A DNA stretch of 64,000 bases, taken from Siphonodentalium dalli (taxonomy: Eukaryota; Mollusca; Scaphopoda; Gadilida; Siphonodentaliidae). The notes under the pieces were generated by a model. It was not told the DNA's origin, searched no databases, and saw only the letters and a program-made list of their open reading frames with translations. Both the position numbers and the translations under genes were made by a program. Below, one piece after another: positions 3,441 to 62,830 of this stretch. Positions within the stretch are counted from its first letter, which is position 1. Each line of letters opens with the position of its first letter. The stretch lies in contig CP136063.1 in the NCBI GenBank assembly GCA_032622095.1, positions 75,679,980 to 75,743,979 of the forward strand. Direction: 5' to 3'.

Positions 3441-3602
3441 AAGTGTAAAGAAAGAAATATATTCCCTGCCTTGTTTGTTCAATTTTATAATATTCCTCGT
3501 CAGTGCAGAACATTAAAATGTATACGGTTGGATTCTGAAAAAAGAACACACCAATATATATCTTCAAGTAAATGATTCTAAAGCACCGCGAGAACTGTAT
3601 TT

Positions 3603-3886: not shown

Positions 3887-3892
3887 GTATTT

Positions 3893-11973: not shown

Positions 11974-12760
11974 TTATGGGATGCCAAATTCAAATTTAAT
12001 AGCTAATTATGCTAAAGAATAATTGCCTCACTCACAACTTCATTACGATTAAGCGTAATGCCATTACGCTTAAGCATAATAGGTGTTCATAGCCTTACTA
12101 CCTCACATATAATGGTATCATCTAAGGTATGTCAATATTTACTAGCATTAGTAATTGGCTGCACCCATTTCAGCTTCAGTGGAGTTTTGAGATATGGAAT
12201 TTGAATTACGCTTTACGTAATGGCATTACACTTAAGAGTAATAGCGTAATTCAGATTTCCATTACGCTGAAGTCTGGAAATCTGAATTACGCTTAATGAA
12301 GCCTTAATCATAATGGCATTACGCTTAACCCTTTACCCAACAGAACGGCCCTGTGCCAATGCATTCTCTTATATATGCGAGTCGACCATAGGTCGCCTCG
12401 CATATATAAGAGAATGCATTGGCTTAACACATTAAGAATTATAAAATTGTTAAAGAATGTAAGAAAAAATGGTAAAAAGTGTTAAAAAAAGAGTGGGTAA
12501 TGCATTCTCTTATATATGCGAGGCGACCAATGGTCGACTCGCATATATAAGAGAATGCATTGGCACAGGGCATAAATGTAACCATCGCAATGTGGTCAAT
12601 GAGCCGGTTCCAATGATATCCATATTTGTATGGTTTTATTGAGACAGACCCAAGATAATTTAGGCTGTTGCGGCTTTATTTGGCCGTTTTTGGCCGGTTT
12701 GTTGGGTAAAGGGTTAAGCGTAATGGCTATCAAATGTGAATATGGCCTCCCATAGTAGCT
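11974..12760. mobile_element. Palindrome-array element Q, split by a T3 insertion
   Basis: Ends are inverted: left GCTTATGGGATGCCAAATTC, right GTGAATATGGCCTCCCATAGTAGC. The body (12040-12330) repeats the 20-bp palindrome CATTACGCTTAAGCGTAATG in several degraded copies. The same kind of ends frame element R at 52817-53317. A T3 element interrupts it at 12325-12717, exactly at the TTAA centre of one palindrome. Confidence 0.7.
12325..12717 (+). mobile_element. TTAA element family T3, copy 1 (double hairpin)
   Basis: The ends are TTAA-CCCTTTACCCAACA...TGTTGGGTAAAGGG-TTAA, a textbook piggyBac-style terminus. Inside are two 67-bp near-perfect hairpins at 12356-12422 and 12497-12563. Each has arms CCAATGCATTCTCTTATATA, and they are reverse complements of each other. 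The subterminal right part contains GCCGGTTCCAATGATATCC and GGCCGTTTTTGGCCGGTTTG. No transposase. Other copies: 30141, 33725 and 49683. Confidence 0.9.
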
Positions 12761-13674: not shown

Positions 13675-14175
13675 TTAAAGGTACGGTTGGCCTTGGCGGT
13701 GGGTATCCTGTGAAAATATTTCCACCCGTTAAAAACCGCCGCAAACAGGAGGAACAACAAAATGTAGACATACTTTGTCCGTATACAAATAAGAAATATC
13801 GCATAAACAGTATGTTATTGTCATATGTTTGACCATTGTTATGTAAACAAAAGGTTAAAAAGTTACTTTTCTGGTGTTTGTTTATATTATGATGGTAAAC
13901 ATAAAGAGCGTTCTTTGTTGGTGAATTCCTGATATGGAACGAATAAAGCGCGTTTATGCCAATTGTGTGTGATTAGCCAGCAGCATTGTGCTGTCTTCTG
14001 TAACACAATCAGGCTCTTGCTTATGTAAAATATAGTAAATCTTTATGATAACATGCTGTTTACGCGATGGTCATGGTATATATGAACGAAACTGTATGCG
14101 TTTTAATGTTTTTCTGTTTGCGGTGATTGGAACAAATATGAATATTTTCGACAACTAAGGCCTCACGTGCCTTTA
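13675..14175 (+). mobile_element. TTAA element family T1, copy 2
   Basis: Full-length, TTAA at both ends. TIRs AGGTACGGTTGGCC and GGCCTCACGTGCCT. The same internal order as the copy at 4775. Confidence 0.9.
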
Positions 14176-15703
14176 ATTATTCTTGATTCATGATATTTAA
14201 TTATTATTTTCATTTATAAAAAGGCAACTACCCAAAGTATTCTTCTATTTTTGAGAATTTTCATGTCATTCCTGTCGATCAATGAACAATTGGGCTGAGA
14301 TGATGAATGGATCATGGGTTCATAACCAGGTTAAAGACATCCCAAAACGTAACATAATTGCAATTTCTTCCAATGTGGCCGAAAATAATGAGGTTTTTTT
14401 CACTATAATATTGCAAAATGACATGACACAAATCAGCATTTTTATCATAACACATGGACCATTTTGGCGCATAAAACGTTGTGCCAGCTTAAATGGATCT
14501 ATAAAACAATATTTTGAAAAAATGTTGTTTTCAATTTTACACTTTGTTCCGTTCATCATATCTGGAAAATTATTGCGTATTTTTACAATATTAGTTTACC
14601 TTGAGCTAATATGATATTCCGATATGTTGAGAGTGACCTTGAATCTTCATTAAAATGTTTGTTGTGTCATAAATTCACCATCTAAAATGTGGTGGTATCT
14701 ACTAGGTTTTGCCAAACCACGAGCACACTCGAAAAATAGGGAACTTATTTTTTTAGTTCACAGCTACTAACGTCTGGGAATATATAACCACTATCCATTT
14801 ACATATATACGTACTTTATGGGTAAAACTAACCTTATTACATCACCGATTTAAAAGACAATTTCCCAGAAAAGAGTTATTAGAAGCACTGATAAAAAAAA
14901 CTAGAAATTTATCCAGAAATGGATGACTCTAAAGTGTTAAATAATAGAATTTCTGAGTAATTTTGGGTTTTGCACAAGGATAAACACCCGATTATGCATA
15001 CAATTGGCAACCTAAGATACTGCATATAAAAATAAAAACCATTTCAGAAAGAATTAAACATCTATTTCTTTAGAGAGTATGGATTTCCGATGTTTCTCAA
15101 ATCTATTTTTAGTGCCGCATGCGATTTCCTCATTGCAGTGAATAATTATTCTCAATTAAAGCGATAAAAACACAATTAAACGCACAATACACAGCGAAAA
15201 TATTCTACAACCTCTATAATTCATGCAGGTATAGATCGGTACACGATAGTTAATCCAAATTTATTGTTATGGCCGTTGTATTGTTGTGTCAATTTCTGAA
15301 AACAAAAACATGTCGAAACCTCGTTTCGGGTTTAGTCCGATGGATGACTGTGAAGTCTTCAACATATTTAAAAATAATATTTGACGGCTAATTATACTAT
15401 ATTTATAAGAAATTAGAATATATTGCATACTATTTCTTCTTTGTGCTGTTTTTCAACTTTTAAAGAAAGTTTCAGTTAGAAAATCTCTATTCATAAAGTA
15501 AGATTATATACAAGCCCATTTTTACCAAATGCTCCAGTATCACAGTCTATGTTCCTGTGGATGCACTTGATATCTTAGGAAATCTATGAACCGAAGCGTA
15601 CGCATGATATTTTATGATCAAATATACCCTAAAGGTCACATTATCGAACGAGATCCTTACAATATAAGAGCAAAATAGACGAGATCTAACATCAGCTAAT
15701 TTC
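14176..15703. other. No gene recognised
   Basis: The stretch is AT-rich. An open frame at 14282-14614 has no recognisable domain and unremarkable composition. Confidence 0.4.
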
Positions 15704-22718: not shown

Positions 22719-23218
22719 ATGCACTTTCCTTTGAGTGAATTCGTTCTTGCAATCAATTGGAGGCATGAACTGTTTAGTTATCCAAGTATTCAACCAGAAC
22801 AAAAGATAAAGGCACTACCAGCTAACTTTGATCATCGACGCTTTAGTAAAGTCGTTGAAGCTGAATTTGGGAATCAACCCGGAAGAAATTGGATAGAAGC
22901 TTTTGGTGTCATTTAACGCGAAAAAGCTTCAGGAACAACATATCCAAAATCCGCAAAAATCCACTCATGGGAATATTTAGGATCCAAGATCACTGCACTG
23001 GATTTAAGTCATATAACTTTTCTCCTGTTGAAACCTAACGGTGCCAACGTACACAGGGGACCTGTTAGTATATCCACATGTTGCTTAGTATGCCCCCCCT
23101 GGTGTTGGACGTTTTGTTTATAGCACACTCTTCAACGTGGGCGGCACGATCTGACAGATTATTTTAATGAGTCGAAATAACTACCGACGTACCTCTCAAT
23201 AAACAACTGAGATCTGGT
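22719..23218 (+). pseudogene. Possible N-terminal part of the decayed multicopy-family gene
   Basis: A 65-codon open stretch ends in RNWIEAFGVI and, after one stop codon, reads on in the same frame as REKASGTT. This is followed by SKITALDLSHITFLL in a shifted frame. The composition is protein-like (FDHRRFSKVVEAEFGNQPG), and the strand and position fit the gene that starts more clearly at 23219. I am not sure that it belongs to that gene. It could be a separate fragment. No start codon or promoter can be assigned. Confidence 0.4.
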
Positions 23219-23536
23219 GTGTCGCCATTTGATTTCACGACAGACTGTATTTTCTCCGGTACGCCTGCCACTATAGATCATCGACATCCAGACAAACCAG
23301 GGGAGAGGCAAATAACAACCCTCCCAATCCGGGACAATATCCTAAAATTATGTGACAAAGTGGGACCAAATGGGCATCTGAGGTACATGATCGGTTGTGT
23401 GGTTGCATAGACCCGACATCAGCAGAATATTCTACCACCTACGCTGTTAATCTGATTTCTAGAAGGGTAAAGGAAATCCAACATTGACCGATAAGGCTAA
23501 AAGTGGTAGGAAATCAGACCAGGGAATCCAGCAATA
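23219..23536 (+). pseudogene. Decayed gene of an uncharacterised multicopy family, segment 1
   Basis: The open stretch has DHRHPDKPGE, then TTLPIRDNILKLCDKVGPNG. After frame changes it gives SDF.KGKGNPTLTDKAKSG and GRKSDQGIQQY. From memory, this order (a Cys-containing head, an IRDNIL-like helix, then a GR.xDQGMQ-like block before a helical region) matches the start of long, uncharacterised proteins predicted in many copies in cnidarian and mollusc genomes. At least three frameshifts or stops are present, so it is not functional. It is cut at 23536 by a 2.2-kb element and continues at 25724. Confidence 0.65.
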
Positions 23537-25723
23537 TAGTTTGGTCGATAAAAGGTTTGACCTAGAAAAAATTTGGACTAAGTTGGTTTTTATTCCATTT
23601 TGAAGAGGAATATTTCCTCTACAACATATCCAAAATCCGCTAAAATCCGCTTTGAGCAAACTTTTTAACAGAGATTTTAAAAAATGCTCATTTTTCGACC
23701 TTGCGAAGTACGTTTTTCTACAATATCCCTCATCGGCGACACCAGAACGCATTAATCCTCCATCCGATATATACCAGTTTGTGTAAACGAGTATAGGGGG
23801 CGAATAGAGTGACAAGGACAGAAAACAATGCAATCGCGGCGATGAAATGGCTGTCAAAATGGCCGCAACTACAATCCATGCTACGATGATAGCAACATAT
23901 TGGATAACCCCCTATACGCGAAAATACACATTTGTAATTTACAATAATGTTGTTATATATCTTTAAAGGTACACATATAATTAAAACAGATCTATCTGAA
24001 TGATTTATCGATCACTGCTACGCACGTTAACCCAATGATTTACATTCGGGTTTTCTTATTAGAATACACCCAACAGTCGGACCAAAAACAGTTATTTTGG
24101 GCATGCAACACACGAAGTAATATTTTGTCACACAGTGCGTGGTAGTTTCCTTTTGGAATGATGATTAATTATTGAATGTAAAGCACAAACTGAAGAGCCC
24201 ACCCTATCTGTGTAAATACTAGTTATATTTCCAGAATTTTCAACACTCTCCGTGACAATAAACCATACACGTATGTCGTAATGCTGATTATACTGTCAAG
24301 AAACACTTATCTCTTCAACAGAATAGTACCATATCTCACTAGATCGAAGAGACTGTACGTCGTACATTTTATTTAGTACTAATTTTCATGGTGCTCCCAA
24401 ACCGGTTTCTTAGTAGACAATTATGTTCAAATTACTTCAATCGGCACTTTACAACATGAATATGTACCCCGCAATACACACTATTAGTTGTCAGTACCTT
24501 GTTGTTTGAAATTATGTTACCATTGCCACCCACATACTTGCGCTAAATATCAGGTCATCAGCGTTTACAGTTATTAGATCTGCGTTTACCATTCACTCAA
24601 TGTTGCTATTTATGGTTTTGTATGCAGCAGATATGTGTACCATTAGGGAGAATGGGTAAACGCGGCGATGCGGTTGCATAAAAGGTCGTACGTCTCGCGT
24701 ATATGTGGCCTTAGTGCATTTAAGTGCACATAATTTCCAGGTATAAAGACAGTCTCTGCCATAGAGTATGTAGGCAAATTGGGTTATGTTGAGAATTTAT
24801 TGAAGATAGTCTATTTCAATCCTTTGTATTTTGATAAATTGCGTTCATGGTATACCACCATGTATTTGTGTGATAAAAATGAAATATTCGTGTTTAATCA
24901 CTTGACCGGAGGCAACTATGACTACTATTTTAAGACACAGACAATAGGATCTACACATTTTACCTAGTACCATATGAATAGCTCTCATACTGTTCTATAG
25001 TAGTGAATTTTGACAGACTGTGTGTTGTAGATTCAAAAATAAATGATTATCGGTCACATTCGTGAGACTGTTTTCATTACATATATTTCTGCTGCTAGAA
25101 AAGGTCACACAATGAGTACATCCCTATTAGATCACATTTAACTGTTTTAATACACATATATTACACGATTCAAGATAAACAATACAGATAAAACTGCGTT
25201 ATTCTTGGCGCCCAAAAAGTTCACATTCAATCGTTGTATGAGACCTGGCTTTCGGTTGCTCTCTCGCGTGATACATTAGAGAGAATTCTTACATACTATT
25301 ATCAATAGCTCCCCTTATACTCAGAGCTCATTCTCCCTCGTATAATTCGACGGCCTGTTCGTTCTTGTATAACCAGCTATTCAATTTTCCGCAAATTGTA
25401 AATTTCTTTCGATTTTGTCCATTTTGGCGGCCATTTTGGACAGACATTCGACCGATATGGTTTACGACTAAGGATTGTTGTGTGGATTTTATTTTATTAC
25501 TAATTTGGTATTTGTTGGCGCACCTACCACCGAAATTCAGGATTGTTCTATACCAACTGCCATCATGGACGCCATCTTGTATTACAGAAAATGCTCAAAG
25601 CGGATTTTAGCGGATTTTGGATATGTTATAGAGGATATAGTCCTCTTCAAAATGGAATAGAAACCAACTTAGTCCAAATTTGTTCTAGGTTGACCCTAAA
25701 CTTTTAGTTTATCGACCAGACTA
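23537..25723. mobile_element. 2.2-kb TIR element inserted in the decayed gene
   Basis: The left end TAGTTTGGTCGATAAA (23537) and right end TTTATCGACCAGACTA (to 25723) are inverted. The TIRs extend about 120 bp (23537-23658 and 25593-25723) and include TTTGGACTAAGTTGGTTT and ATATCCAAAATCCGCTAAAA. The flanks are ATA on both sides, consistent with a TA (Tc1/mariner) or 3-bp duplication. The interior has no convincing transposase; short frames at 24779-24967 and 25365-25660 are unrecognised. It separates two parts of one gene, so it is younger than the gene copy. Confidence 0.8.
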
Positions 25724-28356
25724 ATAGATGAGGTGGCTTGTAGTTGGCATGAAACCGAAGCTGGTGCAGAATTATATACTATAATCATGACACAATGATT
25801 GAGTATGCGGGTGATTAGCATGTGTATAGTATAAAATGGCTCAAAGAGAAACTACAGGACCACTACGGGGAGTATATATATTTTCGCCGAAGTTGTATAG
25901 TGTGTTTTCGGAACAAGGCAAAGTTTATCATAAAAAAGTACTGTGATAAGAGAGATAGTATTGAACAGGAAACTGAAAGGATAATGTTGACAGCAGCAAT
26001 GATATTACGAGTAGAAACTAATTCACACCCAACCAGTGAATATATATCTTCCATTGATCGGGGTCGATAGCGGATTTCACATTATATCATATAATTTATA
26101 TGCACACGCTGTTAAATGTTCTGATTCCATCCGATTTGAAGATTGGACGGCAATCTCACACGACTTCCCCGTCGAGTAAATTTTAAGATAAATAGCATTG
26201 GACACTCAATAATTAAATCTGCTAGACCGCGATCTGTTATAACACCAACACTCTTTGGTGTGGATGTAGAGATGGATCACGTGTTTGGTTCCAAATGGTT
26301 GGTGAATGAGTTATCTTGGCTGGGGTACTACATGAAGTAGAAAGATACAAATAGTCTGTCATACAAACCGAACGTCCTGGCGATATTCTAGCCTACTATT
26401 TTCTCGGAACATTTACGATATGGGTGTACAAAAGATCAAACACAGCTTAGCCCCAGTCCACGTACTATTAACAGGTGCCAGGTAACATCTTGGTGAGATA
26501 GTTGGAGGTAAAGGAGTCCAGATATGCCATTATGTTTTATTCTTCATTGTCTTACAAACCTTTGCTTTAACTGATCACTCCACACACACATTGCCCCCAG
26601 ACCTCAACACTGATCTATTTTGGCATTCGGGGTGGTTTGTGAACCAAAGAATCGGGCAAATTTGTCGGCTTCATCCAAAATATTATGACTGATGACCAGA
26701 AGTGCCCAACACAGTCTGATGTTCTGTTTTTGCCGATTATGTATTTGGATCCTTCCGATGAGGACTGTATATATTCAACTCTCATTTATGTTGAGGGTCA
26801 AGCGACCAAACTAAACATCCCGACGCCATGTATAACATTTGATCAGCCGTTGTGGATAAAGGCCGTGCATATTATAATGACCAAGTCCACGGCCATATGG
26901 CTTTCATACCATTATGAGTTTCATTTGGAGTATCGGCTCACTAATGAAGGTTTCGGGTTTGGAAGATGCTCTGGAGAATGTGTATGGTCATAAAGCAGTT
27001 ATACGTGATTTCTGGGAAGGCAATATCAAGTGCAATGCGTGGACATTTCTTAACTGATGCTGCTCTTACTAATAAGCTGATATCAGGCATTGTACCATCT
27101 ATCTATCAAGTATAAGTCCGGCGAGCCCATGGGGTGGCCGAGTAGTGCAGAATAAGAAAGTGCTCAATGCTTCACCAGATGCTACAGAAACTGTTAATCA
27201 GTCTGACGAAAACCCCAATTCCTAGAATCGAGAAGGTTGAGATGAACGCAATAAGTGATTTATACAAAGACATTGAAAGTATAGTAATTCATGCAACTGC
27301 TGTGTCTGAGTCTCAACCAAGAAGATATCAATCGTTGCTTATTGAGAAATCTCCGACAGCAAAGTTATGGGTTCAGTATATGGAATATGTGCAAACGTTT
27401 CATTAGAGCAAAGAGGACAGGAAATTAGAGTCTGCATCTCGCTACTGTGAGGCAAATGCTCAATCTATTTGTCGCAACCGGTCACGCCAAATGCCAAGAG
27501 CTGTCGACTTTATCTCCAGCAAATGTTGGATCTACATAATAAGCACCCTTGGCTCTACAATTGTTTCGCCAAAAATGGGTTTCATGCTGTACGTAGGAGA
27601 AATAGATTATGGGCAGTATTGTCAACATATCTCACAATAGAACAAGTCCGTACTACTATAAGTATGCGTTCTACCAAAAAGCAGAGGAGGGCTTACATGA
27701 GGTAGAGGAATGTCCGAATATGTCCGAATGTAGTTGATATATACCATGCATAGGTGTGCCGAGATTCATAATACCTTGACATAATTAACCAAACTTAGAC
27801 ACACCACCACGCTGAGTTCGGCGCATGTAGGAGCAAACGTGACTCTGATGATCTTATAAGCATACAAACGTTGGTTTGACGAACATGAGCCTATTGATTT
27901 GAGTGAAGTAAACTACGATCCGTGTCGTCTGGGTTAACATATAGTGATATGAACGGTGTTAACTGTATTGATTCTGAACATGTCGGTTGCGAGATCCACA
28001 CCAACCTCCACAGCATGAGTATCACAGATGCCTCAATCGAGAGGAAGGATCAAATAAAATCTGTTGACCATTTGTATCCTAGGATCAGAGTCGAGAATCA
28101 TCGAATGTAATTTAACCCAACTGTGCTATTCTCATGATTAATGGCAATTGCACAACGCGAGGAAGACATGGCTAATTTTGTTTTCATACGAACGTCATGA
28201 CAACAATACCAACATCACTATCCAGGGATCATGCGACGAGGAAACCTATAAAAGCCCAAACTAGCTAAAGCGTTGACTGATTCTGTCCCGGGTTGTGATT
28301 TGCCGGAGCAAGCCATCTCTATTATCGATGGTGATGTTCTTCTTCAGAGGATGCGG
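25724..28356 (+). pseudogene. Decayed gene of the multicopy family, segment 2 (main body)
   Basis: Protein-like blocks follow the expected order with frameshifts between them: DEVACSWHETEAGAELYT (25727), IKWLKEKLQDHYGEYIYF (25822), RPRSVITPTLFG with MDHVFGSKWLVNELSWLGY (about 26220-26330), PDLNTDLFWHSGWF (about 26600), and PTPCITFDQPLWIKAVHI (26685-26993). Then come GSGLEDALENVYGHKAV (about 26950), SPTAKLWVQYMEYVQ (27167-27406), AKSCRLYLQQMLDLHNKHPW (27469), KRWFDEHEPIDLSEV (about 27870), SITDASIERKDQIKSVDHLY (27922-28110) and IIDGDVLLQRM (about 28325). I recognise these from memory as one co-linear family of unknown function. Numerous stops and shifts show it is dead. Insertion of a T1 element at a TTAA ends the segment. 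Confidence 0.8.
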
Positions 28357-28882
28357 TTAAAGATACGGGAGGCGTTGGCGGTGGGCATGCTGTTAAAATA
28401 TTCACCTCGGTAAAAAACCGTCATAAACAGAAACAAATAGTAAAACATAGATATACTTTGTTCTTATACAATCAAAAATATGGCATAAACAGTATGTTAT
28501 TGTCAAATGTTTTTCCTTTATGTAAACAAAAGCAAAAAAACGTTACAGCACCTGGCTTTTGTTTAGATCCGGATATGGTGAACATAAAGATATATATTTG
28601 TTACTGTTTTCCGGATATGGAAATAATAAAGAGCGTTTCTATGATTAGTGTGTGATTAACCAATATAATTGCGCTGTGTTATGTAAATAGAAGCAAAGCT
28701 TCTGTAACACGAGCAGGTTCTTGTTTACGTACACCATCGTACGTCTTGGCGACAATATCCTATTTACGCGCTGATTATGTTTGGCGTATGAACAAAACTA
28801 TATATATCTTAATATTCCTTCCGTTGATGGCGATTTGAACAAATATGAATATTTCTGCAACGAACGCCGCCCGTCCCTTTAA
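28357..28882 (+). mobile_element. TTAA element family T1, copy 3 (long subfamily) in the decayed gene
   Basis: TTAA at 28357-28360 and 28879-28882. Ends AGATACGGGAGGCG / CGCCGCCCGTCCCT. It is about 25 bp longer than the copies at 4775 and 13675, and shares extra bases (GTTTAGATCCGGATATGG, TTACTGTTTTCCGGATATGG) with the copy at 48289, defining a subfamily. Confidence 0.9.
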
Positions 28883-28930
28883 GTGGCAAAAAATATGCAC
28901 ATGCCGAGAAGTATCTAACCAATATGTTAA
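28883..28930 (+). pseudogene. Decayed gene, short island between two TTAA insertions
   Basis: Sixteen codons read KWQKICTCREVSNQYVK, the next part of the same protein, trapped between element T1 (ends 28882) and the T7/T1 block (starts 28927). The island keeps the reading frame that is taken up again at 29790. Confidence 0.75.
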
Positions 28931-29285
28931 AGTGATGTGAAACACTCCGGTAGAGTCACCAAATAGAAGTGGAGAATAATCTTGCTCAAAGTAGTAATTT
29001 TTACAGATATTATATCCAAATTGACAACACAGGCATTCATTCTTATATGTTAATTAAATGCAGTGACGCTCGGTGGCGAAATTGTTTTCGTTAGTTTATC
29101 ACCGATAGATGCGTCCCGAATCGAGTAGTAAATATTTACAATTGACGATGTTTTCGGACGATAGTACGGTTGATTTGCTTAAAATTTTCAGCTATGTGAG
29201 TAGAATGTTCCATTCATCAAGTTGGCATAGCGCCTGAATACTTATCAGTTTCATGCACCTGAACAAGTACATAATATATCTTTAA
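28927..29285 (+). mobile_element. Repeat T7, copy 3, inserted in the decayed gene
   Basis: Starts TTAAAGTGATGTGAAACACTCC at a TTAA and runs to the TTAA shared with the next element. Only the first 110 bp match the other T7 copies. The remainder (about 29040-29281) is unmatched here. Because gene sequence resumes at 29790, all of it must be inserted. Confidence 0.65.
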
Positions 29286-29789
29286 AGGCACGGTTGGCCT
29301 TAGTTGTCGAAAATATTCACATTTGTTCCAAACACCGTAAACAGACAAACATTAAAACGCATATACATGTAGTTTCGTTCATATATACCATGACCATCGC
29401 GTAAACAGCATGTTATCATAAAGACTTACTATATTTTACATAAGCAAGAGCCTGATTGTGTTACAGAAGACAACACAGTGTCACTGGCTAATCACACACA
29501 AATGATATAAACGCTCTTTATTAGTTCCATATCAGGAATTCAGCAACAATGAACGCTCTTTATGTTTACCATCATAATATAAACAAACACCAGAAAAGTA
29601 ACTTTTTATGCTTTTGTTTACATAACAATGGTCAAACAAATGACAATAACATACTGTTTATGCGATATTTCTTATTTGTATACGGACAAAGTATGTCTAT
29701 ATTTTGACGTTCTTTCTGTTTGTGGCGGTTTTTGATGGGTGGAAATATTTTCACAGGATACCCACCGCCAAGGCCAACCGTACCTTTAA
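29282..29789 (-). mobile_element. TTAA element family T1, copy 4
   Basis: Minus-orientation copy: AGGCACGGTTGGCC at the left, GGCCAACCGTACCT at the right, TTAA at 29282-29285 and 29786-29789. It lies directly against T7, so the two share a TTAA. Confidence 0.9.
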
Positions 29790-30140
29790 GTATGTGCGAA
29801 CGAAAAATGGAGTTGGGTGAATTGTATTCGATGGCTACGGATATGGTCCGTCGACCAAAGACCACGAACACCTAAGGGAAACTGGGAAAACATGTGCAGA
29901 TAACCAACTCAAAGACCACACGGATGCCCATGTGAATCAAGAGACCTTTCTCTAAAACGAGAACATTAAGAGTCAGTTTATTGATTTGTCGAGTCAACTA
30001 CTCAGCGCCGATGGACAAACAGTACACAATAGTACACAGGAGACGCGGACACATTCACATTGGTAGTTGCCTCTGTCATTGAATACGCATCCCATTCGAA
30101 ACAAGTGAGTGCGGTTGCAAATGACACCGATATACTGCGT
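29790..30140 (+). pseudogene. Decayed gene, segment with PIN/XPG-like nuclease motifs
   Basis: One frame reads YVRTKNGVG, a stop, then IVFDGYGYGPSTKDHEHL, HVNQETFL and FIDLSSQLLSADGQTV. In the next frame it gives GDADTFTLVVASVIEYASHS and VSAVANDTDILR. The acidic positions in SADGQ, GDADT and ANDTDIL are arranged as in the PIN/XPG/FEN nuclease fold, where carboxylates bind two metal ions. That assignment is my inference from spacing and motif shape. There are two or three lesions in 350 bp. A T3 element cuts the segment immediately after the DTDIL strand. Confidence 0.75.
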
Positions 30141-30525
30141 TTAACCCTTTACCCAACAGAATGGCCCTGTGCCAATGCATTCTCTTATATATGCGAGTCG
30201 ACCATATATAAGAGAATGCATTGGCTTAACACATTAAAAATTATAAAATTGTTAAAGAATGTAAGAAAAAATGGTAAAAAGTGTTAAAAAAGATTTTTTT
30301 TAGGCCAATGCATTCTCTTATATATGCGAGGCGACCTATGGTCGACTCGCATATATAAGAGAATGCATTGGCACAGGGCATAACTGTAACTATCACAATG
30401 TGGTCAAGGAGCCGGTTCCAATGATATCCATATTTGTATGGTTCTATTGAGACAGACCGAAGATATTTTAGGCTGTTGAAGCTTTATTTGGCCGGTTTTG
30501 GCCGGTTTGTTGGGTAAAGGGTTAA
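30141..30525 (+). mobile_element. TTAA element family T3, copy 2, in the decayed gene
   Basis: TTAA-CCCTTTACCCAACA ... TGTTGGGTAAAGGG-TTAA. The first hairpin has lost its central loop (30166-30226) while the second (30305-30371) is whole. It otherwise matches the copy at 12325. Confidence 0.9.
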
Positions 30526-31152
30526 AGAGTACTCCACAGAATGTCAATGGATGTAATAATATACATAAAATGTCTTAGCTATTTGTGTATATTTGGACAT
30601 CAAATATGGCAGACGTGGACGGACATGTAAAAGAGGCAATACGCTATGGACAATTGGCGATATCGTGAATAAGGCGGGTTATGCCACAACAAAAACATTC
30701 TGTCTCTGCTTGCGTGGTTAGGTTGCGACACCACTTCTGCCATTATGTCGGCATGGTAAAACCGGTCTTACCAAGACATACCAAGAATATGCTGACTTAC
30801 AACTATGTTTTATAGTACATGCATTGATCCCTGTTTACCAATCTTGCCCGTATACGCATATTCCCAATTCGCGTCGTATCGCCTTGCATTTCAGCAATTG
30901 GTATGGGCATTGTCGCTATGACATCTGTTCGGGTGCAAACCCAATGATTGTAATCGTGCGCACGTCGACGCCACCGATTTCCAGACAGGGAACTATGTCT
31001 GACTTAATCACGGATTATTTCGATGGTAACTCAATAAACGATATTGGTTTTGTGCCAAGCTGATAACCTCGTTGACACATATTTGGTGTGCGGCAGACGG
31101 AAACAAGATTCCTTGGTGTGATATAAGTTTGACACATTCGTGTATGCACAGC
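30526..31152 (+). pseudogene. Decayed gene, C-terminal segment
   Basis: After the T3 element the frame gives LWTIGDIVNKAGYATTKTF and, one frame over, LAWLGCDTTSAI. This matches the GCD-type strand that follows the DTDIL motif in the family and in XPG-like nucleases (compare GCDY in FEN1). Further on, a weak YLVCGRRKQDSL (about 31080) may correspond to the helical tail. The usual proline-rich tail block is not found. The segment ends at the mariner-like MITE at 31153. Several frameshifts are present. Confidence 0.65.
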
Positions 31153-32110: not shown

Positions 32111-32711
32111 AGTTTTATTGCATGGGATTTGTAGTATTTTTTCGCAATTGAATACAAATCATGCCATTAATATACTCTTGTCATATTCCACCAGTTACAA
32201 ACCTGGTAACTATTTATAACATCGAGCAAAATATCAAATATTATGTACTTAGTCAATACACATTCCCTCATAATGTATTCCACAGCACGCGAAGGGCTCA
32301 GTTCAAGATTGCATGATTTAAGCGACTTTTGTGAGCCAATTTCGCAATAATTCATGAATTGATTGACCCGGTGGAAATTGTATGATCGTAAACGATTCGA
32401 ATCAAAATTGGTCCACATAGGCTCCTAAATCATGTCATCTCCAGCTGGATCGACCTTCGCCTACATGTCACGTGAAAGCCAATATTAAGAATAGATATTA
32501 ACTAGGATTTATATCGCCGGAGTTATTTTATCGATGTTATAAAGTCCCCCGTCAAATATTTAAAATATTTTACATATGTATCTTATGCATAGTTTCATAA
32601 ATCGAGCCCCAAAATTAAGCCGAGTATACGTAGTATTTAGCTTTTATTACACACATATTTGTACGACATGAGGACAATGATCTATATGCCTGTCTCAAGC
32701 GTGAAACAAGG
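32111..32711. other. V repeat and unassigned sequence
   Basis: 32250-32405 is a V repeat (CCTCATAATGTATTCCAC, CAAGATTGCATGATTTAAGC, GACCCGGTGGAAATTG). No gene is seen. Confidence 0.45.
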
Positions 32712-33243
32712 AATCATCATCATCATCATCATCATCACCATCATTATCATCACCACCATCATCATCATCGTTATCATCATCATCGTTATCATCATCATCA
32801 TCATCATAATCATCATCATCATCATCATCATCACCACCACCATCACCACCACCATCATCATCACCATCATCATCATCATCATTACCATCATCATCATCAT
32901 CATCATAATCATCATCATCATCACCATCATCACTATCATCACCACCACCACCATCACCACCACCATCACCATCATCATCACCATCATCATCACCACCACC
33001 ATCTCCCCATCATCATCACCATCATCATCACTATAATCATCACCATCATCATCACCATCATCACCATCATCGTCACCACCATCATCGTCACCACCACCAT
33101 CACCACCATCATCGTCACCACCATCATCGTCAACATCAACATCATCATCATCACCACCAACATCACCACAACCATCATCGTCACCACCATCACCACCACC
33201 ATCACCACCATCATCGACACCACCACCGTCGTCACCACCACCA
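32712..33243. repeat. 530-bp CAT/CAC trinucleotide microsatellite
   Basis: ATC units with interspersed ACC, GTC and TAT units; the CAC content rises toward the right end. It produces long Ile/Thr, Met/Val and His/Ser polymers in translation that are not genes. Confidence 0.98.
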
Positions 33244-33259
33244 GTTCACCATCGGAATA

Positions 33260-33720
33260 GTTATTGTTAGTTAACCGGGATTGGCGTTGGTGTCATCAGT
33301 TATGGTCACGATGATGTCCTGGACGTGCATGGGGTTAACTTCAATCTCTGGAAAGTCACACACGTTGTCCGTTACTACGGCAACTAGAAACTTCCCACCA
33401 AATTAGCATCCAATTTGACAAAATGGTCCATTTATTTAGTGGCAAAAAGCCAGCCGGTCATTTATGTTTTTCTCACTGGCTGGAAGCAAAACGAGGAAAT
33501 CTAAACCGTATATACGCCACTGCAGGTATTTGATAACATCCATCAGCCCATCATCAGCCGTATAATCAAATATGATGACTGCGTGGCAAATTTCCAACCG
33601 AAGGCGGTAGGATGATAAGGCATCCGTATACAAATCAGGAACTCGGGTAACGTGGCTATAGATGGTCTCATATCGGGGATGTCCACCTTGGTATTTCGCA
33701 CATTTCCTATTCAGGGACGT
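33260..33720 (-). pseudogene. Unidentified decayed coding stretch
   Basis: On the minus strand three frames carry protein-like text in order: PDMRPSIATLPEFLICIRMP (33640-33700), then LEICHAVIIFDYTADDGLMD and GLDFLVLLPASEKNINDRLA (33436-33633), then KFLVAVVTDNVCDFPEIEVN and HVQDIIVTITDDTN (33275-33400). Codon-like composition and continuity across frames suggest a former exon or transposon ORF broken by two frameshifts. I do not recognise the family. An alternating strand/helix (alpha/beta) pattern is possible but unproven. Confidence 0.4.
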
Positions 33721-33724
33721 TTTA

Positions 33725-34123
33725 TTAACCCTTTACCCAACAAACCGGCCAAAACCGGCCAAATAAAGCTTCAACAGCCTAAAATATCTTCGGTCTGTCT
33801 CAATAGAACCATACAAATATGGATATCATTGGAACCGGCTCCTTGACTCATTGTGATAGTTACAGTTATGCCCTGTGCCAATGCATTCTCTTATATATGC
33901 GAGTCGACCATAGGTCGCCTCGCATATATAAGAGAATGCATTGGCCTAAAAAAAATCTTTTTTTAACACTTTTTACCATTTTTTCTTACATTCTTTAACA
34001 ATTTTATAATTTTTAATGTGTTAATCCAATGCATTCTCTTATATATGCGAGGCGACCTATGGTCGACTCGCATATATAAGAGAATGCATTGGCACAGGGC
34101 CCTTCTGTTGGGTAAAGGGTTAA
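33725..34123 (-). mobile_element. TTAA element family T3, copy 3
   Basis: TTAA-CCCTTTACCCAACA at the left and TGTTGGGTAAAGGG-TTAA at the right, internal order reversed relative to the copy at 12325. Both hairpins are intact (33878-33945 and 34026-34092). Confidence 0.9.
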
Positions 34124-44004: not shown

Positions 44005-44012
44005 ACGCCGGA

Positions 44013-44513
44013 TTAAAGGCACGTGAGGCCTTAGTTGTCGAAAATATTCATATTTGTTCCGATCACGTAAACAGAAAAACATTAAAACGCATACAGTTTC
44101 GTTCATATATACCATGACCATCGCGTAAACAGCATGTTATCATAAAGATTTACTATATTTTACCTAAACAAGAGCCTGATTGTGTTACAGAAGACAGCAC
44201 AATGCTGCTGGCTAATCACACACAAATGACATAAACGCTCTTTATTCGTTCCATATCAGGAATTCACCAACAAAGAACGCTCTTTATGTTTACCATCATA
44301 ATATAAACAAACACCAGAAAAGTAACTTTTTATGCTTTTGTTTACATAACAATGGTCAAAGATATGACAATAACATACTGTTTATGCGATATTTCTTATT
44401 TTTATACGGACAAAGTCTGTCTGCATTTTGTTGTTCTTTCTGTTTGTGGCGGTTTTTGACGGGTGGAAATATTTTAACAGGATACCCACCGCCAAGGCCA
44501 ACCGTACCTTTAA
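44013..44513 (-). mobile_element. TTAA element family T1, copy 5
   Basis: AGGCACGTGAGGCC left, GGCCAACCGTACCT right, TTAA at both ends; inverted relative to 13675. Confidence 0.9.
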
Positions 44514-49330: not shown

Positions 49331-50177
49331 CGGCGGGGAATCACGTGTTTCGAGGTTGGTGAGTACCACGCATACAAAATGGCCGACACACGAAATCATA
49401 ATATACGAGGAACTGACACAACACACAGGATTTTGATTATTACCAGCAAATGCTTGTTTATTTTCAGTGGGTTTTCTATAACATTACTGACCAAAGTTGA
49501 CAGTCGGAGGTGCGTGGAATACTCCAGTCCATACATCTTGGAATATCCTTCGACTGACAACTTTGGTCAGAATGTTGGAGGAAACAATTGTGAATTTTGA
49601 CACAAATGAGGTATCAGCTTGTTTGAGAAATAGTATAGCATCTGCTCGTAGCTGACAAAATGCCATGTAATATGTCACATCTTTAACCCTTTACCCAACA
49701 AACCGGCCAAAACCGGCCAAATAAAGCTTCAACAGCCTAAAATATCTTCGGTCTGTCTCAATAGAACCATACAAATATGGGTATCATTGGAACCGGCTCC
49801 TTGACCACATTGTGATAGTTACAGTTATGCCCTGTGCCAATGCATTCTCTTATATATGCGAGTCGACCATAGGTCGCCTCGCATATATAAGAGAATGCAT
49901 TGGCCTAAACAAAAATCTTTTTTTAACACTTTTTACCATTTTTTCTTACATTCTTTAACAATTTTATAATTTTTAATGTGTTAAGCCAATGCATTCTCTT
50001 ATATATGCGAGGCGACCTATGGTCGACTCGCATATATAAGAGAATGCATTGGCACAGGGCCGTTCTGTTGGGTAAAGGGTTAACTACCTTTTTCCTCGTT
50101 TCTGGTCGCTTTTTCGATCGCCTCGGCCATTTTGATGCGTGCTACTCATCAACTCGAAACCACGTGATTCCCCACCG
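49331..50177. mobile_element. Inverted-repeat element W, host of a T3 insertion
   Basis: CGGCGGGGAATCACGTGTTT...CATACAAAATGGCCGA (49331-49388) is mirrored at 50120-50177 by TCGGCCATTTTGATGCGTGC...CACGTGATTCCCCACCG. Inside lie a hairpin (49486-49572: CTGACCAAAGTTGACAGTCG and its inverse) and the T3 copy. No coding. Confidence 0.7.
49683..50083 (-). mobile_element. TTAA element family T3, copy 4
   Basis: Intact TTAA ends and both hairpins (49838-49905 and 49986-50052). Nearly identical to 33725-34123, hence probably recent. Confidence 0.9.
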
Positions 50178-55849: not shown

Positions 55850-57149
55850 ATGAACGTGGTGGTGATGATGACGATGATAATGGTGGTGGTGGTGGTTGGT
55901 GACAATTATGATGGTGCTGATGATGATGCTGGTAATGACTACGACAATGATAATGGCAATAGCGATGACGATGATAATGTTGATGGACATGATGATGATT
56001 CTCAACACAATGTTGGTTTTAAAATATTATCTCTTAATGTTTATGGCTTGTATCAAAGGCTGAACTATCCCGAATTCCAATCTTTATTAGATCAGTAATA
56101 CGTGCTCTGTCTTTGTGAAACGAAGACATACATGGAGGACGACATATCTATACCGGGTTTCGAAATTATATCCAAGAGGAGCAGACGTAGAGGTGAAGGT
56201 AATCGGTCAGGCGGAATATTCATAGTCGTAAAACCTTCGAAACATTTGGTAGTCAAACAAATTAATCTTAGTTCAGAACAACAATATCAGTTTTACCACA
56301 ACAAATCCGCTGTCAAAACTTATACATAGCGGCGGTCTACGTTATGTACAACACACAAACACTATAGATACGCAGATAATCAGTGGTCCGATAACGTGTT
56401 ACAGGATATTCTAACCATCAGAGGATCGGGTCATGAGGTTCTACTATTGGGCGATTTTAATGCAAGGACGAGCACACTGAACGACAATACTGATGATGAT
56501 GAATGGACAGACGTTGACTATCTTGGCAATTATATATGTGTACCTGACAATTTTGATAAGCCCATTTCAGTTATTGAAATTCCAGAAAGTTGTTCAACAG
56601 ATAAAGGGAAACCAACTCGTATGGATACCGACTTATCGACTTTTGTAAGGGTGGTAGTATTAATATCATGAATGGAAGGTCAGGTAACTATCACGGAATA
56701 GGCAAATGCATATGTCGAGAAGTTAGTGTTATTGATTATGCAATTGGGACTAGAATGCTATTCCCACTTGTTACTGATTTTGATATACTCGATTTCAGAC
56801 GTGCACTGTGGTCTGACCATTACGCTTGATTTATCTTATAGCGAGCAGACATATACTCAACCAACTAATGGGATCCCCTTGGGACCAAAGATTCGAAGAT
56901 GGAGGCACGACAAATATAGTGATTATATCGCCGCGGTGCAAGAAGCTATACCTGAACTGAATGACTTGTTTAATTCTGTTCACTCTGTGAATTCGTCCCA
57001 AGATATTGACTTATTGACCAGGGGAGTCTCCGATGTTTTAGCAAAGGCTGGCGAGAAGACGTTTTCAATTACAAATAGGACTAAACAGAAGCATCATAAG
57101 ACAGGATATAAGGGAACAATGTGGTTTGACGCAGAGTGTAGACGTAAAA
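55850..57149 (+). pseudogene. LINE ORF2 remnant, AP-like endonuclease domain
   Basis: It starts ATG at 55850 with an unusual Asp/Asn-rich leader made by GAT-type repeats (to 55990), then FKILSLNVYGLYQRLNYPEF. After a stop, LCLCETKTYMEDDI is the Glu-containing endonuclease motif and SGGIFIVV follows. LLLGDFNAR (about 56440) is the catalytic Asp/Asn motif. FDILDFRRALWSDHYA (about 56790-56825) carries the terminal SDH. The frame then runs to WFDAECRRK at 57149, where a 5.3-kb element is inserted. Several stops are present. Domain order and motifs are those of exonuclease/endonuclease/phosphatase-type LINE endonucleases. Confidence 0.85.
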
Positions 57150-58171
57150 TAGACCGGCCCCCAGATGAGGGTAGTGTCACACGAAAGGGTAGAAATTTTG
57201 ACGCTATCTCCAATTATCTTTGTCCCATGGGGGTTCCAAAACACTGAGGTATCCAGGCCGGAACATGTGGAAAATATATATTTTTTGACCTTTTTGGTGT
57301 TTTTGACCTGCAAATTTCAGTATAATCAGGAAAACCAATAAAATAAGACAAATGTTGAATAAAATATACTTGAATATAAGATATTTATTCTATCTTGGTT
57401 GCTTAAAATTTATGATCTGCAAAACGTTATATTATCCAACAAATTTTGTGAACAATTCATGAAAATGCCAAAAATATGCATAAATTGCAGTGCTTTTTCA
57501 AAAAAGTTTTCCAGAAGATTTCCTATAAAATTTTCAGTTTTCGGTATCAAGCTCTGAGTGGTGCATCAAACTTTTCAGCATTATATACCTGATTTAATAA
57601 TATCAAAATCACAAGCAATGATATCCAAAAAGCCGAGATATTTCCAAAAACTTAACCCACCCCCCTAAAATTGATTTTCTATCTGAAAATACCTGTCAAG
57701 TCAGAATAGCCCGTTTTCGTTCCGTTTTGTTAACCAATTCAGAGTCTTATTATATATCATGGAATTTACATGTATCTGAGGAGGTTTATGTTATGGTATA
57801 GTCTATTTTTGTTTAATTTTTTGATTTGTTGGGGGTAAATTATCTAACATTTTGATTATTGTAAGTGAAAAATTCCCATGACTGTCAGTTTTATGGATAC
57901 AGCTGCACAACATGCACCACAATAAGCATAAATTCTTCCCCAATATCAGACATGGAATGCTATAATCATGTACCAGACTAGAATTAAGAAATAAAGTAAA
58001 ACTTAACCCTACCACAAGATAGTGTTCTCAATGCTCTCAATGTTATGCTATACGAAACTCGAAAGGTTGTTCATACTTAAGTGGATAGAATTCATATCAT
58101 AAATTGCAATAGTTCTGCCCACGGATTATGCAATCTCATCTTCATTGTCAATTTCATCAAATTTGATGGTA

Positions 58172-58626
58172 TCAGTCAATAGAATTTCTGTGCAACACCT
58201 TACGGAAGAATGGTTCAAACAACTCAGGCTGGCTATCGGCCGTCCATCCATGAAGTGCTACACCGGGAGTGGTTGATTTGGCAACGGTTGCAAGTCTCCA
58301 CTGTTTTGTTATCATGTTTGCTCGTTTTGAGTGTAGAATTAAAGATTCATCACATGGCAGAAGTGCAGAAAGATCAAGTAGCTTCTGCTGATTCTCGAAC
58401 TTCTGTGGGAAAATTATCCGCCTAGCTTGATTCACTTTTCTCGAACGTTGAACATATAAGGCACATGCGTGTCACTGTCCAAAACCCAATTCGTTCCTAA
58501 ATATGCCATGACTTCCATATATTTTGATCGTCTTTCCAGCAACGTGCAGACAAGTTTTTTTTCCTTTTTGGAAGGTATCATTACCCGTGAAGGAATGGAA
58601 CCCAATAAGTGCATTATTCTGTACAT
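58172..58626 (-). pseudogene. Left-arm copy of a multicopy-family C-terminus
   Basis: Minus strand: KYMEVMAYLGTNWVLDSDTH, then (shifted) KFENQQKLLDLSALLPCDES and LILHSKRANMITKQWRLATV, and ALHGWTADSQPELFEPFF. The block LPC..SLILHS.RAN...QW...GW corresponds, from memory, to the tail after the GCDT nuclease motif in the same superfamily as the decayed gene at 23-31 kb, though from another branch. The upstream part of the protein is absent. Confidence 0.55.
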
Positions 58627-58799
58627 TTCACGTGAATCACCTGCCCATTAGCATCAAAATTGATTAACTATTATCAGGGGGAAATCATTTAACGTTTTCT
58701 CCAACGTGCAAAACGGCATCAAGATGGATAACTCTCTGACATGACCTCTCTATCGATTAATATGTCGTTGAGTTATTGTGGAAAGCAATAGCAACCCAA

Positions 58800-60360
58800 G
58801 GTACACATGTATAACCAACCCAGTAACATACAGTCACTCCATATATACACATAAACACCACACAAATGACAAGATAGTCACCCACTCTGTGTACACATAC
58901 ACCTGACCCATGACCATATAGTCACTCCCTGTATACATATTCACCACTTTCATGACCATAAGTCAATCCTTGTATACCTATTCATCTCACCATTGGCCCT
59001 ACGGTCAATCCCCGTATACATACTCGCCATATACACCCCATCCATGACCATAGAGTCACTACATGTATACATATGCAATGCATCTCACCATTGGCCATAT
59101 AGCCACTCGCTTCATATATGTACCCCTCACACATGACCATATATATCCACACTTGTGTATACATGTACACCCCACACATGCCCATACAGCCATGAGTCAT
59201 CATGCAGGCACACTAGGTATACTCATACACTTGACCCATGACCATATAGTCACACCCTGTGTACCTATATTCAACACATTCATCATCATACAGTCAATCG
59301 TTGTATACAAATTCACCTCACCATTGGTTATACGTCACTGACTGGATACATGTTCACCAAACCCATGGCAAAATAGCCATGCAAGATATACATATACCCC
59401 CCAACCATGACCATAGAATCACTCCAGGTAAATATATGCACCTCACTAATGGCGATATAGCCACTCACTTTATACACATATCTCTCCATAACCATACAGC
59501 CACACTTATGTATACCCGTACACCATACACATGACCATACAACCACGCAGGCACACCAGGTATACTCATACACCTTACCCATGACCATATAGTCACTCTC
59601 TGTATACCTATTCACCGCATTCATGATCATAGTCACTCCTTGTATACCTGTTCACCTCACCATTGGCCATACAGTCACTCCCTGGAAACATATTCATCTC
59701 ACTATTGGCCATAGAGTCACTCACTGTATATATATTTGCCACGTCAATAGTCATATAGCCACTCGATATATGGATATACATCCACACACTCGTCAATGAC
59801 CATTCAGCATACACCAGGTACACATATACACATTATGACTACTGTCATTCCAAGTACACCTATACGCATTACAAATAGCTGCACATCTATTTATCCATTC
59901 AACCCACCAATGATCATACAGACAACACATGTATACATATACACCTATCTATGACAATACAGCCACACAAGGTACATCTGTACATCTCACCCATGAACTT
60001 ACAGTCACTCCATATATACATAAACACACATATGACCATGTAGGTACTCTCGTTATTTACATACATGTAAACCACAGCAATGCCCATTGAGCCACATTGT
60101 GTACACCTGTACTGGGTAATCATAACCATACAACCATACAGTCACTCCCTGTATATATATTCACCTCACACATGACCATACTCTCACTCCTTGCATACAT
60201 ATACATCTCACCATAGCCACCCCATGCATGACCATATAGCTAATCATGTACACCTATTCACATCATTCATGACCATAAAATAACTCCCTTCATACATATT
60301 CACCTCACCTATGACCACACGGTAACTCCCTTGTTGCCATATTGACCTCCAGCCTGTATC
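58800..60360 (+). repeat. Satellite array in the loop, about 45-50-bp units
   Basis: Degenerate units such as CATGACCATATAGTCACTCC plus CTGTATACATATTCACCTC. About 30 units with alternating variants (CATTGGCCATATAGCCACTC). Unit divergence is high, so the array is old or evolving fast. Confidence 0.85.
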
Positions 60361-60943
60361 ATGTTGATCAATGTTTATCCTAATAGGCCAGAATAGCCAC
60401 AAATTATGATTCATTTCAGTTCCATTTCAAAGTTCTGCCCATTTATTAAAAAATATATAGCCAGTATCCAAAAAGAGGTTTTCGGGAAAAAAAACAAATA
60501 AGGCAACTGTAAAATTAATTTGTAATACCCCATAAGGAAATGGGACAACCAGAATAGAACGTTTAGTTGTCAGTTGATTAGCTAACATGTAAAATAACCA
60601 AGTGAGTCACAATTTGCTACATTTTCGGAAACGCAGAGAATAATGTTCGGGATATATGTAAAAAATGGTTGCCATTTTGAGTAACATTTTTCATACCAAA
60701 CAAAGTTACATTTTACTTGAAATATTTTGTGCCGTTGTTTATGTCAAGTTTGTGAGAAAAAATCCAATATTTCTGGTAATGTCAGTGGTGACAATAGTAA
60801 AAATTAACTAAGGTGCATCAGACATGTTAGTGTTCAATGTATAGAAGGCAGAATAGCCAACTTTATACATCAACCACAACTTGGAAGCGATTGCGGGACA
60901 CGCTGGGTCAATATCTACCATTTCCACATTTTGGCAGCCAAAT
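60361..60943. other. Loop sequence, unassigned
   Basis: AT-rich; an open frame begins at 60837 and continues into the right arm. Confidence 0.4.
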
Positions 60944-61405
60944 ATACAGAAGAATGCAGTTGTTGGATTCCATTCATTCACAGGTAATTACCTTTCATCG
61001 TTGTTCCAAAAAGGAAAAAACACTACTGGAAGTTGCTGGAAAGACCATCAAGATATATGGAAGTCATGGCTTATTTAGGAATGAACTGGGTTTTGGACAG
61101 TGACACGCTTAATACAATCAAGGAGTTAGCATGCGCCTTTTACATGTATGGTCCACAATCGAGAAAAGTGAAGTAAGCTAGGTGGGTAAAGTCCCAGAAG
61201 AAGTTCGAGAATCAGCAAAAGGTAGATGATCTTTCTGCACTTCCACCATGTGAGGAATCTTTAATTCTACATTCAAAACGAGCCAACATGATAGCAAAAC
61301 AGTGGATACTTGCAACCGTTGCCAAATCAACCACTCACGGTGTAGAACTTCATGGATGGACGGCCGATAGCCAGCCTGAGTTGTTTGAACCATTCTTCTC
61401 GTAAG
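60944..61405 (+). pseudogene. Right-arm copy of the multicopy-family C-terminus
   Basis: Plus strand: KKEKTLLEVAGKTIKIYGSH with GLFRNELGFGQ. The next frame gives LNTIKELACAFYMYGPQSRK, then WVKSQKKFENQQKVDDLSAL, PPCEESLILHSKRANMIAKQ and VELHGWTADSQPELFEPFFS, ending at TAA 61402-61404. It is the better preserved of the two arms (a complete tail with one or two shifts) and carries KELACAFYMYG, a block lost on the left. About 1.05 kb of 3' non-coding sequence follows to the element end. Confidence 0.6.
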
Positions 61406-62466
61406 ATGTTGCACAGAAATTCTATTGACTGATACAATCACATTTGATGAAATTGACAGTGACAGTGAAGATGAGATTACACAATCCGTGGGCAGAACTA
61501 TTGCAATTTATGATATGAATTCTATCAACTAGTATGAGCAACCTTTCGAGTTTAGTATAGCATAACATTGAAAGCATTGAGAACTCTATCTTGGGGTAGG
61601 GTTAGGTTTTACTTTATTTCTCAATTCTGGTCTGGTACATGATTATAGCATTTCATGTCTGATATTGGGGAAGAATTTATGCATATTGTGGTGCATGTTG
61701 TGCAGCTGTATCCATAAAACTGACAGTCATGGGAATTTTTCAAAAAAAATTCACTTAAATATAATACAAATGATAGCTAATTTACCCCCCACAAAATCAA
61801 ATATTTAAACAAACTAGACTCTACCATAACATAAACCTCCCCAGATACATGCTAATTCCATGATATATAATAAGACTCTGAATGGGTTAACAAAACAGAA
61901 CGAAAACGGGCTATTCTGACTTGACAGGTATTTTCAGATAGAAAATCAGTTTTAGGGGGTGGGTTAAGTTTTTTGAAACATCTCGGATTGTTGAATATCA
62001 TTGCTTGTGATGTTGATATTAATAAATCAGGTATATAATGCTGAAAATTTTGATGCACCAATGAGAGCTTTATACTAAAAAATGAAAATTTTATGGGAAA
62101 TCTTCTGGAATTTGTTTTGAAAAAGCACTGCAATTTATGCATTTGTTTTGCTTTTTCGTGAATTTTTCACAAAATTTGTTGGATAATATAACTTTTCGCT
62201 CATCATAAATGTTAATCAACCCAGATAGAATAAATATCTAATATTAAAGTATATTTTATTCAACATTTGTCTTATTTTATTGGTTTTCCTGATTATACTG
62301 AAATTTGCAGGTCAAAACACCAAAAAGGTCCAAAAAAAATATTTTCCACATGTTCCGGTCTGGATACCTCAGTGTTTTGGAACCCACATGGGACAAGGAT
62401 AATTGGAGATAGCATCAAAATTTCTACCCTTTCGTGAGACACTACCCTCATCTGGGGGCCGGTCTA

Positions 62467-62830
62467 AAAGGGAGAATTTAATAAGACTAAATAACTTAAA
62501 GTCGGATACAAATAAGCGTCACCTAAAAATAGCCAGCAAGTCGTGCAAAAAACTATGGAAATAAAAATAAACACTATGCGAGATAATTGTGCAGCAGAGC
62601 TTCGTACACTGTCGCGCAATGAACCTTTACTTCCGAATTCTTGAAAACTTTTAGAAAGTACTCTGATATAAATGAGCAACGCGATTGTATTAATATGGAA
62701 ACATTCTACGATCATTTTAAGGAGTTGAACGAACATAATGATGATACTGATCACAGATTTAATAGGTCAAATGGAGGAATGATCTGGCTGTGACGAAATG
62801 AATGCCCCTATTGATGATGGTGATGCTTAT
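62467..62830 (+). pseudogene. LINE ORF2 remnant, downstream of the insertion
   Basis: The frame resumes as ENLIRLNNLKSDTNKRHLKI and ASKSCKKLWK, the basic linker between endonuclease and reverse transcriptase in LINE ORF2. Later blocks read FYDHFKELNEHNDDTDH and DEMNAPIDDGDA, as expected just before the reverse transcriptase. No reverse-transcriptase motif (such as YXDD) follows, so the element is truncated at about 62830. Confidence 0.65.

What the first reader, a model, noticed from the sequence alone, without database searches (positions are those of the whole stretch)
57150..62466. Inverted-repeat element whose arms carry the tail of the same kind of protein
Each 1.5-kb arm encodes LPPC..SLILHSKRAN..AKQW...GW followed by about 1 kb of non-coding sequence up to the element end. 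This tail resembles that of the family decayed at 23-31 kb. If so, the family is a transposon cargo or its transposition protein, and this is a fold-back derivative made from two 3' ends. It could be an undescribed transposon type with a PIN/XPG-like nuclease.
Basis: partly seen in the sequence, partly recalled or inferred. Interest (0 to 1): 0.8.

Follow-up and report, generated by a model that had tools for sequence, protein, structure and literature searches.

The report
Fold-back jumping element with nuclease remnants
A 5.3-kb inverted-repeat stretch is one copy of a jumping element that is widespread in this genome and is built from two copies of the tail end of a larger transposon carrying a DNA-repair-type nuclease; its build is unusual, but it most likely belongs to a transposon group already known (AcademX).

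Summary
Arms 57150-58628 and 62466-60940 are 87.8% identical, share 23-nt ends and are flanked by AAA. Each carries a decayed C-terminal protein tail about 1.06 kb from the end. The exact 23-nt end occurs 425 times in the 2.23-Gb genome, control 0. Exact 3-bp duplications flank 13 of 18 fold-back copies, and paralogous empty sites exist.

Locus L037 holds a 7.86-kb element with the same ends, a 3-bp duplication and ~880-bp terminal repeats; the window arm matches its 3' end nearly throughout but its 5' end for only ~870 bp. Its C-terminal ORF is predicted to fold like XPG/FEN1/EXO1/XRN nucleases.

'Undescribed transposon type' is not supported: 3-4 bp duplications plus a nuclease is what a held paper reports for AcademX. 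Limits: no DDE fold could be shown, no AcademX reference sequence was available, and no intact transposase of the parent family was found: L037 lacks the putative DDE stretch and L038 has broken frames. New here is a fold-back family of this kind with a foreign minisatellite centre.

The parts
57150..58628 (.). Left arm (type A), 1,479 bp: about 870 bp of terminal inverted repeat plus about 610 bp from the inner 3' part of the parent element
   Evidence: 87.8% to the right arm; arm 1-864 and 966-1479 map to the L037 3' end, 1-868 also to its 5' end; A clade, support 100/99
60940..62466 (.). Right arm (type B), 1,527 bp, inverted
   Evidence: B clade, support 100/99
57150..57172 (+). Left 23-nt end, TAGACCGGCCCCCAGATGAGGGT
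   Evidence: 199 forward and 226 reverse exact occurrences in the genome, control 0
62444..62466 (-). Right 23-nt end, same sequence on the - strand
57147..57149 (.). Target-site duplication AAA, left copy
62467..62469 (.). Target-site duplication AAA, right copy
58205..58465 (-). Decayed C-terminal tail of the XPG-like nuclease protein in the left arm
60941..61398 (+). Decayed C-terminal part of the same protein in the right arm, from ..NIQKNAVVGFHSFTG.. to ..GWTADSQPELFEPFF (frames broken)
58629..60939 (.). Centre of the element, also present in other full-size copies; its two non-repetitive parts tested (58691-58800, 60332-60939) have no match in the coding loci L030-L039 or the rest of the window
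58800..60331 (.). Degenerate 42-bp tandem repeat inside the centre
56726..57149 (+). Repetitive coding sequence that was the insertion target; the frame continues from 62470 once one AAA is removed (..WFDAECRRK/RENLIRLNN..). It looks like a non-LTR retrotransposon by eye; Pfam support is weak (Exo_endo_phos, E 0.09, below cut-off, for 56396-56671)
   Evidence: 18 genomic places span the junction uninterrupted
22844..30798 (+). Decayed copy of a related but different coding family (L032 subfamily), 5' end preserved, interrupted; not part of the fold-back

Best explanation
The feature is one copy of a dispersed non-autonomous fold-back DNA transposon family. Each arm is the 3' end of a larger coding element: about 870 bp of terminal inverted repeat plus about 600 bp holding the last part of an XPG-family nuclease reading frame. 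The two arms are joined head to head around a foreign minisatellite centre. Because fold-back copies and the coding element L037 share the same 23-nt ends and 3-bp duplications, the transposase of the coding element most likely recognised the ends and moved both in trans. That coding element is most likely of the AcademX kind: a large protein with a cysteine-containing N-terminus, a putative DDE transposase core and a C-terminal XPG-like nuclease. Shown: arms, ends, duplications, empty sites, family, derivation from 3' ends, nuclease fold by prediction, coding relatives with the same insertion habit. Inferred: the DDE core, trans-mobilisation, the AcademX label, and the founding event (joining of 3' ends of two diverged parent copies rather than a simple snap-back of one).
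Against: The DDE core was not demonstrated: its model has pLDDT 38.1, no Pfam match of note and only an E = 2.5 hit in the PDB sequences. No AcademX reference sequence could be compared. The nuclease profile found nothing in the PDB sequences, and Foldseek gave no PDB hit below E 0.001 (best 3.4e-3, Rat1). The arms are on average 83.6% identical to the L037 3' end, so L037 is a relative of the parent, not the parent itself. 5 of 18 fold-back copies lack matching 3-bp flanks. The 20 loci were taken from the best-scoring hits, so they lean towards copies like the window's left arm.
Confidence: 0.82

Rival explanations
1. The coding elements form an undescribed superfamily in which an XPG/XRN-like nuclease, not a DDE core, does the cutting; the fold-back is a derivative of it.
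For: No Pfam or PDB sequence match of note for the middle region; its structure model failed; the nuclease part is the only domain with a recognisable fold here.
Against: Insertion habit (3-bp duplication) and nuclease match the printed description of AcademX. Candidate catalytic residues are mostly conserved: first D in 7 of 8 proteins (N in L032), second D (TFD) in 7 of 8 (G in L038), E in 7 of 8 (D in L036); three of the 8 (L030, L033, L034) are near-identical.
Confidence: 0.1
2. The fold-back family is moved by another transposase with 3-bp duplications (for example Harbinger or Zator) and merely carries captured AcademX-type DNA.
For: 3-bp duplications are not unique to AcademX (PMC10045372 passage: Zator; PMC12730594 passage: Harbinger).
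Against: The terminal bases of the fold-back and of the coding L037 element are the same and the likeness runs on for ~870 bp at both ends, and L037 has the same kind of duplication.
Confidence: 0.05
3. A host gene end duplicated in inverted orientation (palindromic segmental duplication).
For: The arms contain gene-like sequence.
Against: 425 exact ends over the genome, 3-bp duplications, insertion into a repeat that exists uninterrupted at 18 other places.
Confidence: 0.01

Closest known systems
AcademX lineage of the Academ superfamily of DNA transposons (founding papers by Kapitonov, Jurka and Kojima recalled, not held; a passage seen in PMC10045372)
   Same: 3-bp target duplications, terminal inverted repeats, an XPG-type nuclease in the coding relatives, a large single protein
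   Different: The window element is non-coding and fold-back; DDE core and direct sequence kinship to a reference AcademX element were not shown
Fold-back elements, e.g. Tetris of Drosophila virilis (PMC4079207, passages)
   Same: Long inverted arms, non-autonomous, tandem repeats, rearranged copies, no intact autonomous partner found
   Different: In Tetris the tandem repeats are in the arms, here the long array is in the centre; here the arms carry transposon coding remnants; the passage says most fold-backs seem to belong to Mutator, and here the coding relative has an XPG-like nuclease and 3-bp duplications
AcademH lineage
   Same: Same superfamily as AcademX by literature
   Different: AcademH makes 9 or 10 bp duplications and encodes a helicase (PMC10045372 passage); here 3 bp and a nuclease
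XPG/FEN1/EXO1/XRN nucleases
   Same: Predicted fold and invariant acidic positions
   Different: Part of a transposon protein, 7-15% identity in the rows shown; activity untested

Membership tests
AcademX | 3 or 4 bp target-site duplications | tested here: met
   13 of 18 fold-back copies exactly 3 bp, 5 none; L037 ATG; L030 TAT, L031 TGG; L032 TAA
AcademX | Encodes an XPG-type nuclease | tested here: met
   In the coding relatives: invariants, fold matches; the fold-back itself holds only the decayed C-terminal part
AcademX | DDE transposase core of the Academ type | tested here: inconclusive
   Model pLDDT 38.1; no Pfam match of note; candidate D, D, E each kept in 7 of 8 proteins
AcademX | Sequence kinship to a reference AcademX element | not testable with these tools
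   No Repbase or Dfam at hand; the Kojima 2020 papers are not held
AcademH | 9 or 10 bp duplications | tested here: not met
   no copy of 18 matches at 4 or 5 bp
AcademH | Helicase | tested here: inconclusive
   No helicase Pfam match in the L030, L031, L032, L036, L037 or L039 frames given
Fold-back element | Long inverted arms around a centre without a transposase, mobile as a unit | tested here: met
Fold-back element | Long tandem sub-repeat arrays within the arms (a feature of some fold-backs) | tested here: not met
   The long array lies in the centre; in the arms only arrays of 15-28 bases were found

The most novel reading that the evidence does not exclude
The coding elements behind this family are not AcademX but an undescribed superfamily in which an XRN/XPG-like 5' nuclease domain is itself the cutting enzyme that makes 3-bp staggered insertions, and the many fold-back copies are substrates selected for cruciform ends that such a structure-specific nuclease prefers.
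Probability: 0.06. Interest if true: 0.85.

Novelty: new variant of a known kind. Interest (0 to 1): 0.4.

Why it matters
The source of a fold-back element is often unknown (as the Tetris paper says of Tetris). Here a coding relative, the exact ends, the insertion signature and a retained piece of its protein are all visible, so the origin of a fold-back can be traced. It also shows a large genome rich in transposons with an XPG-family nuclease that Pfam does not recognise, with long intact frames that could be used to ask what a structure-specific nuclease does in DNA transposition.

Tried and rejected
Structure of the putative DDE region (alignment A2, 6 rows): pLDDT 38.1, not used further and not sent to a fold search. 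Pfam, NCBIfam and PDB sequence searches of the coding proteins gave nothing at a meaningful score. A simple snap-back of one 3' end: not favoured, because all 13 B edges compared stop at parent position 758 or 768, while of 13 A edges six run in to 685, L028 to 595 and L029 to 737 (five stop at 765), and the inner parts of the arms are distinct by type while the outer 870 bp are not. Against this, a weak tblastn match takes the B side of L014 in to residue 208 (42% identity), and four loci (L015, L023, L028, L029) have mosaic or unclear arms, so it is not firm. Origin of the centre: not found in the coding loci; an inverted arrangement of the same module stands alone in L016:1-3941, so it may come from another fold-back. 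Fold-back plus Academ in print: the page showed no such paper (109 papers held 3 of the 4 terms, 10 listed; 'academ' there also matches 'academic').

Full report
1. Observation. Arms 57150-58628 and 62466-60940 align over 1,538 columns at 87.8%. Both begin TAGACCGGCCCCCAGATGAGGGT and are flanked by AAA. Each arm carries a decayed protein tail (58465-58205 on -, 61084-61398 on +), 1,055 and 1,068 bases from the ends. The 2.3-kb centre is dominated by a degenerate 42-bp tandem repeat (58800-60331).

2. Insertion site. Removing the element and one AAA joins the flanks into one reading frame. The joined flanks match the genome at 27 places (25 candidates, all scored): 18 of these span the junction without interruption at 76-88% identity, 2 are the window's own flanks and 7 are partial. 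These are paralogous empty sites. The target looks like a non-LTR retrotransposon by eye; Pfam gives only a sub-threshold endonuclease match (E 0.09).

3. The family. The window is part of an unnamed assembly (G000, 2.23 Gb in 9 contigs). The outer 401 bp gave 959 first-look candidates; the 40 scored were 94-100% identical. The exact 23-nt end occurs 199 times forward and 226 times reverse, control 0; these include ends of any coding copies. Among the 100 places listed there, 21 pairs face each other 1,072-10,675 bp apart, 17 of them between 4.2 and 6.3 kb. I fetched 20 loci from the best-scoring hits and one more (L029). With the window that makes 22: 11 carry two long arms with a clear call and all 11 have one A-type and one B-type arm (window, L009, L010, L013, L014, L016, L017, L018, L019, L022, L026); 4 (L015, L023, L028, L029) are mosaic or unclear; 7 had only one arm of 600 bp or more scored in the stretch. 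A tree of 20 arms (11 A, 9 B) puts A and B in separate groups (100/99 each), with the ends of L037 and L038 outside. One founder with two distinguishable arms fits these copies.

4. Insertion signature. Of 18 fold-back copies with both flanks read, 13 have an exact 3-bp duplication and none a 4-bp one; mismatched left/right pairings agree in 7 of 306; no permutation of 100,000 reached 13. Five show none (L014, L015, L023, C1:212127764, C9:103384922). L011, L016, L019, L020, L021, L024, L027 and L029 were left out because one end was missing, truncated or outside the stretch.

5. The source. A search with a composite tail query scored 150 of 2,593 candidates; C4:181379755 had by far the longest open frame, 436 aa without stops, the next being 240 aa. 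Its locus, L037, contains an element of 7,855 bp with the same 23-nt ends, an ATG duplication and TIRs of about 880 bp at 85.7%. The window's left arm maps onto the 3' end as 1-864 and 966-1479, but onto the 5' end only as 1-868. The fold-back is therefore two 3' ends. At residue ~204 of its N-terminal ORF, L037 lacks 1.38 kb that L038 (C3:165987400-165996399) has. L038 is 87-88% identical to the L037 N-terminal ORF, but its frames are broken; one more place, C9:129729058, matches 105 residues at 85% (97 of 952 candidates scored). For the missing stretch itself, the next best-scoring matches after L038 are 48-49% identical, with short pieces up to 63% (137 of 514 scored). Within these limits, coding copies of the parent family are few and damaged, while its ends number in the hundreds.

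7. Relation to the 23-31 kb family. The window copy at 22844-30798 belongs to the L032 subfamily (81% over an 80-aa piece; blastn pieces 77-92%). It is a different family from the fold-back's parent; the two are related through the protein.

8. How the fold-back arose and works. Inner edges differ: all 13 B edges stop at parent position 758 or 768; of 13 A edges six reach 685, L028 595, L029 737 and five stop at 765. Inner parts (arm 871-1479) of A and B differ by about 10% within a copy against about 4% within a type, but the outer 870 bp show little such contrast (9 copies). This suits joining of 3' ends from two diverged parent copies with homogenised terminal repeats, better than a fresh snap-back; confidence about 0.5, given the mosaic arms and the L014 exception. 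The tested parts of the centre are absent from the coding loci, and a related inverted module stands alone in L016:1-3941. Mobilisation in trans by the parent transposase is inferred from shared ends and duplications.

9. Known kinds. A passage of PMC10045372 states that AcademH makes 9 or 10 bp and AcademX 3 or 4 bp duplications, and links this to helicase and nuclease. A passage of PMC10294476 reports Academ elements expanded in bivalves, mean length 5,565 bp. Passages of PMC4079207 describe the fold-back Tetris, without a known autonomous partner. The Kojima 2020 papers and Yuan and Wessler 2011 were not held. I saw passages and search listings only, no whole papers. In the listed pages of the searches made I saw no fold-back AcademX element.

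10. Verdict. Real and well explained: a fold-back, non-autonomous derivative, most likely of AcademX, with its 3'-end origin shown. It is a new variant of a known kind rather than a new transposon type.

Noticed in passing
L016:1-3941: A second fold-back-like structure (arms 1-853 and 3084-3941, 88.5%) with the same minisatellite and spacer module but without the AcademX-type arms; cut off by the start of the stretch. The centre of the window element may come from it.
   Followed up: partly
L029:852-1370: A ~500-bp stretch interrupts an arm; by eye its translation resembles that of the ~500-bp repeat family in the window at 29282-29789.
   Followed up: no
window 4775-5275, 13675-14177, 29282-29789, 44012-44513: A short repeat family, copies 91-96% identical, in both orientations, MITE-like.
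   Followed up: no
window 12325-12717, 30141-30528, 33725-34123, 49683-50083: A ~400-bp repeat family, copies 90-99% identical.
   Followed up: no
model m986127e24338 against viral structures: The nuclease model also matches a Ranid herpesvirus 4 protein (E 4e-5), giant-virus XRN nucleases and, weakly, a wsv139-like nimavirus protein (E 0.011).
   Followed up: no
window 32634-33260: Long microsatellite tract read as poly-histidine in one frame.
   Followed up: no
L037 reverse complement, about 5860-6153: The end of the second ORF looks like a non-LTR retrotransposon C-terminus inserted into the coding element; by eye only.
   Followed up: no
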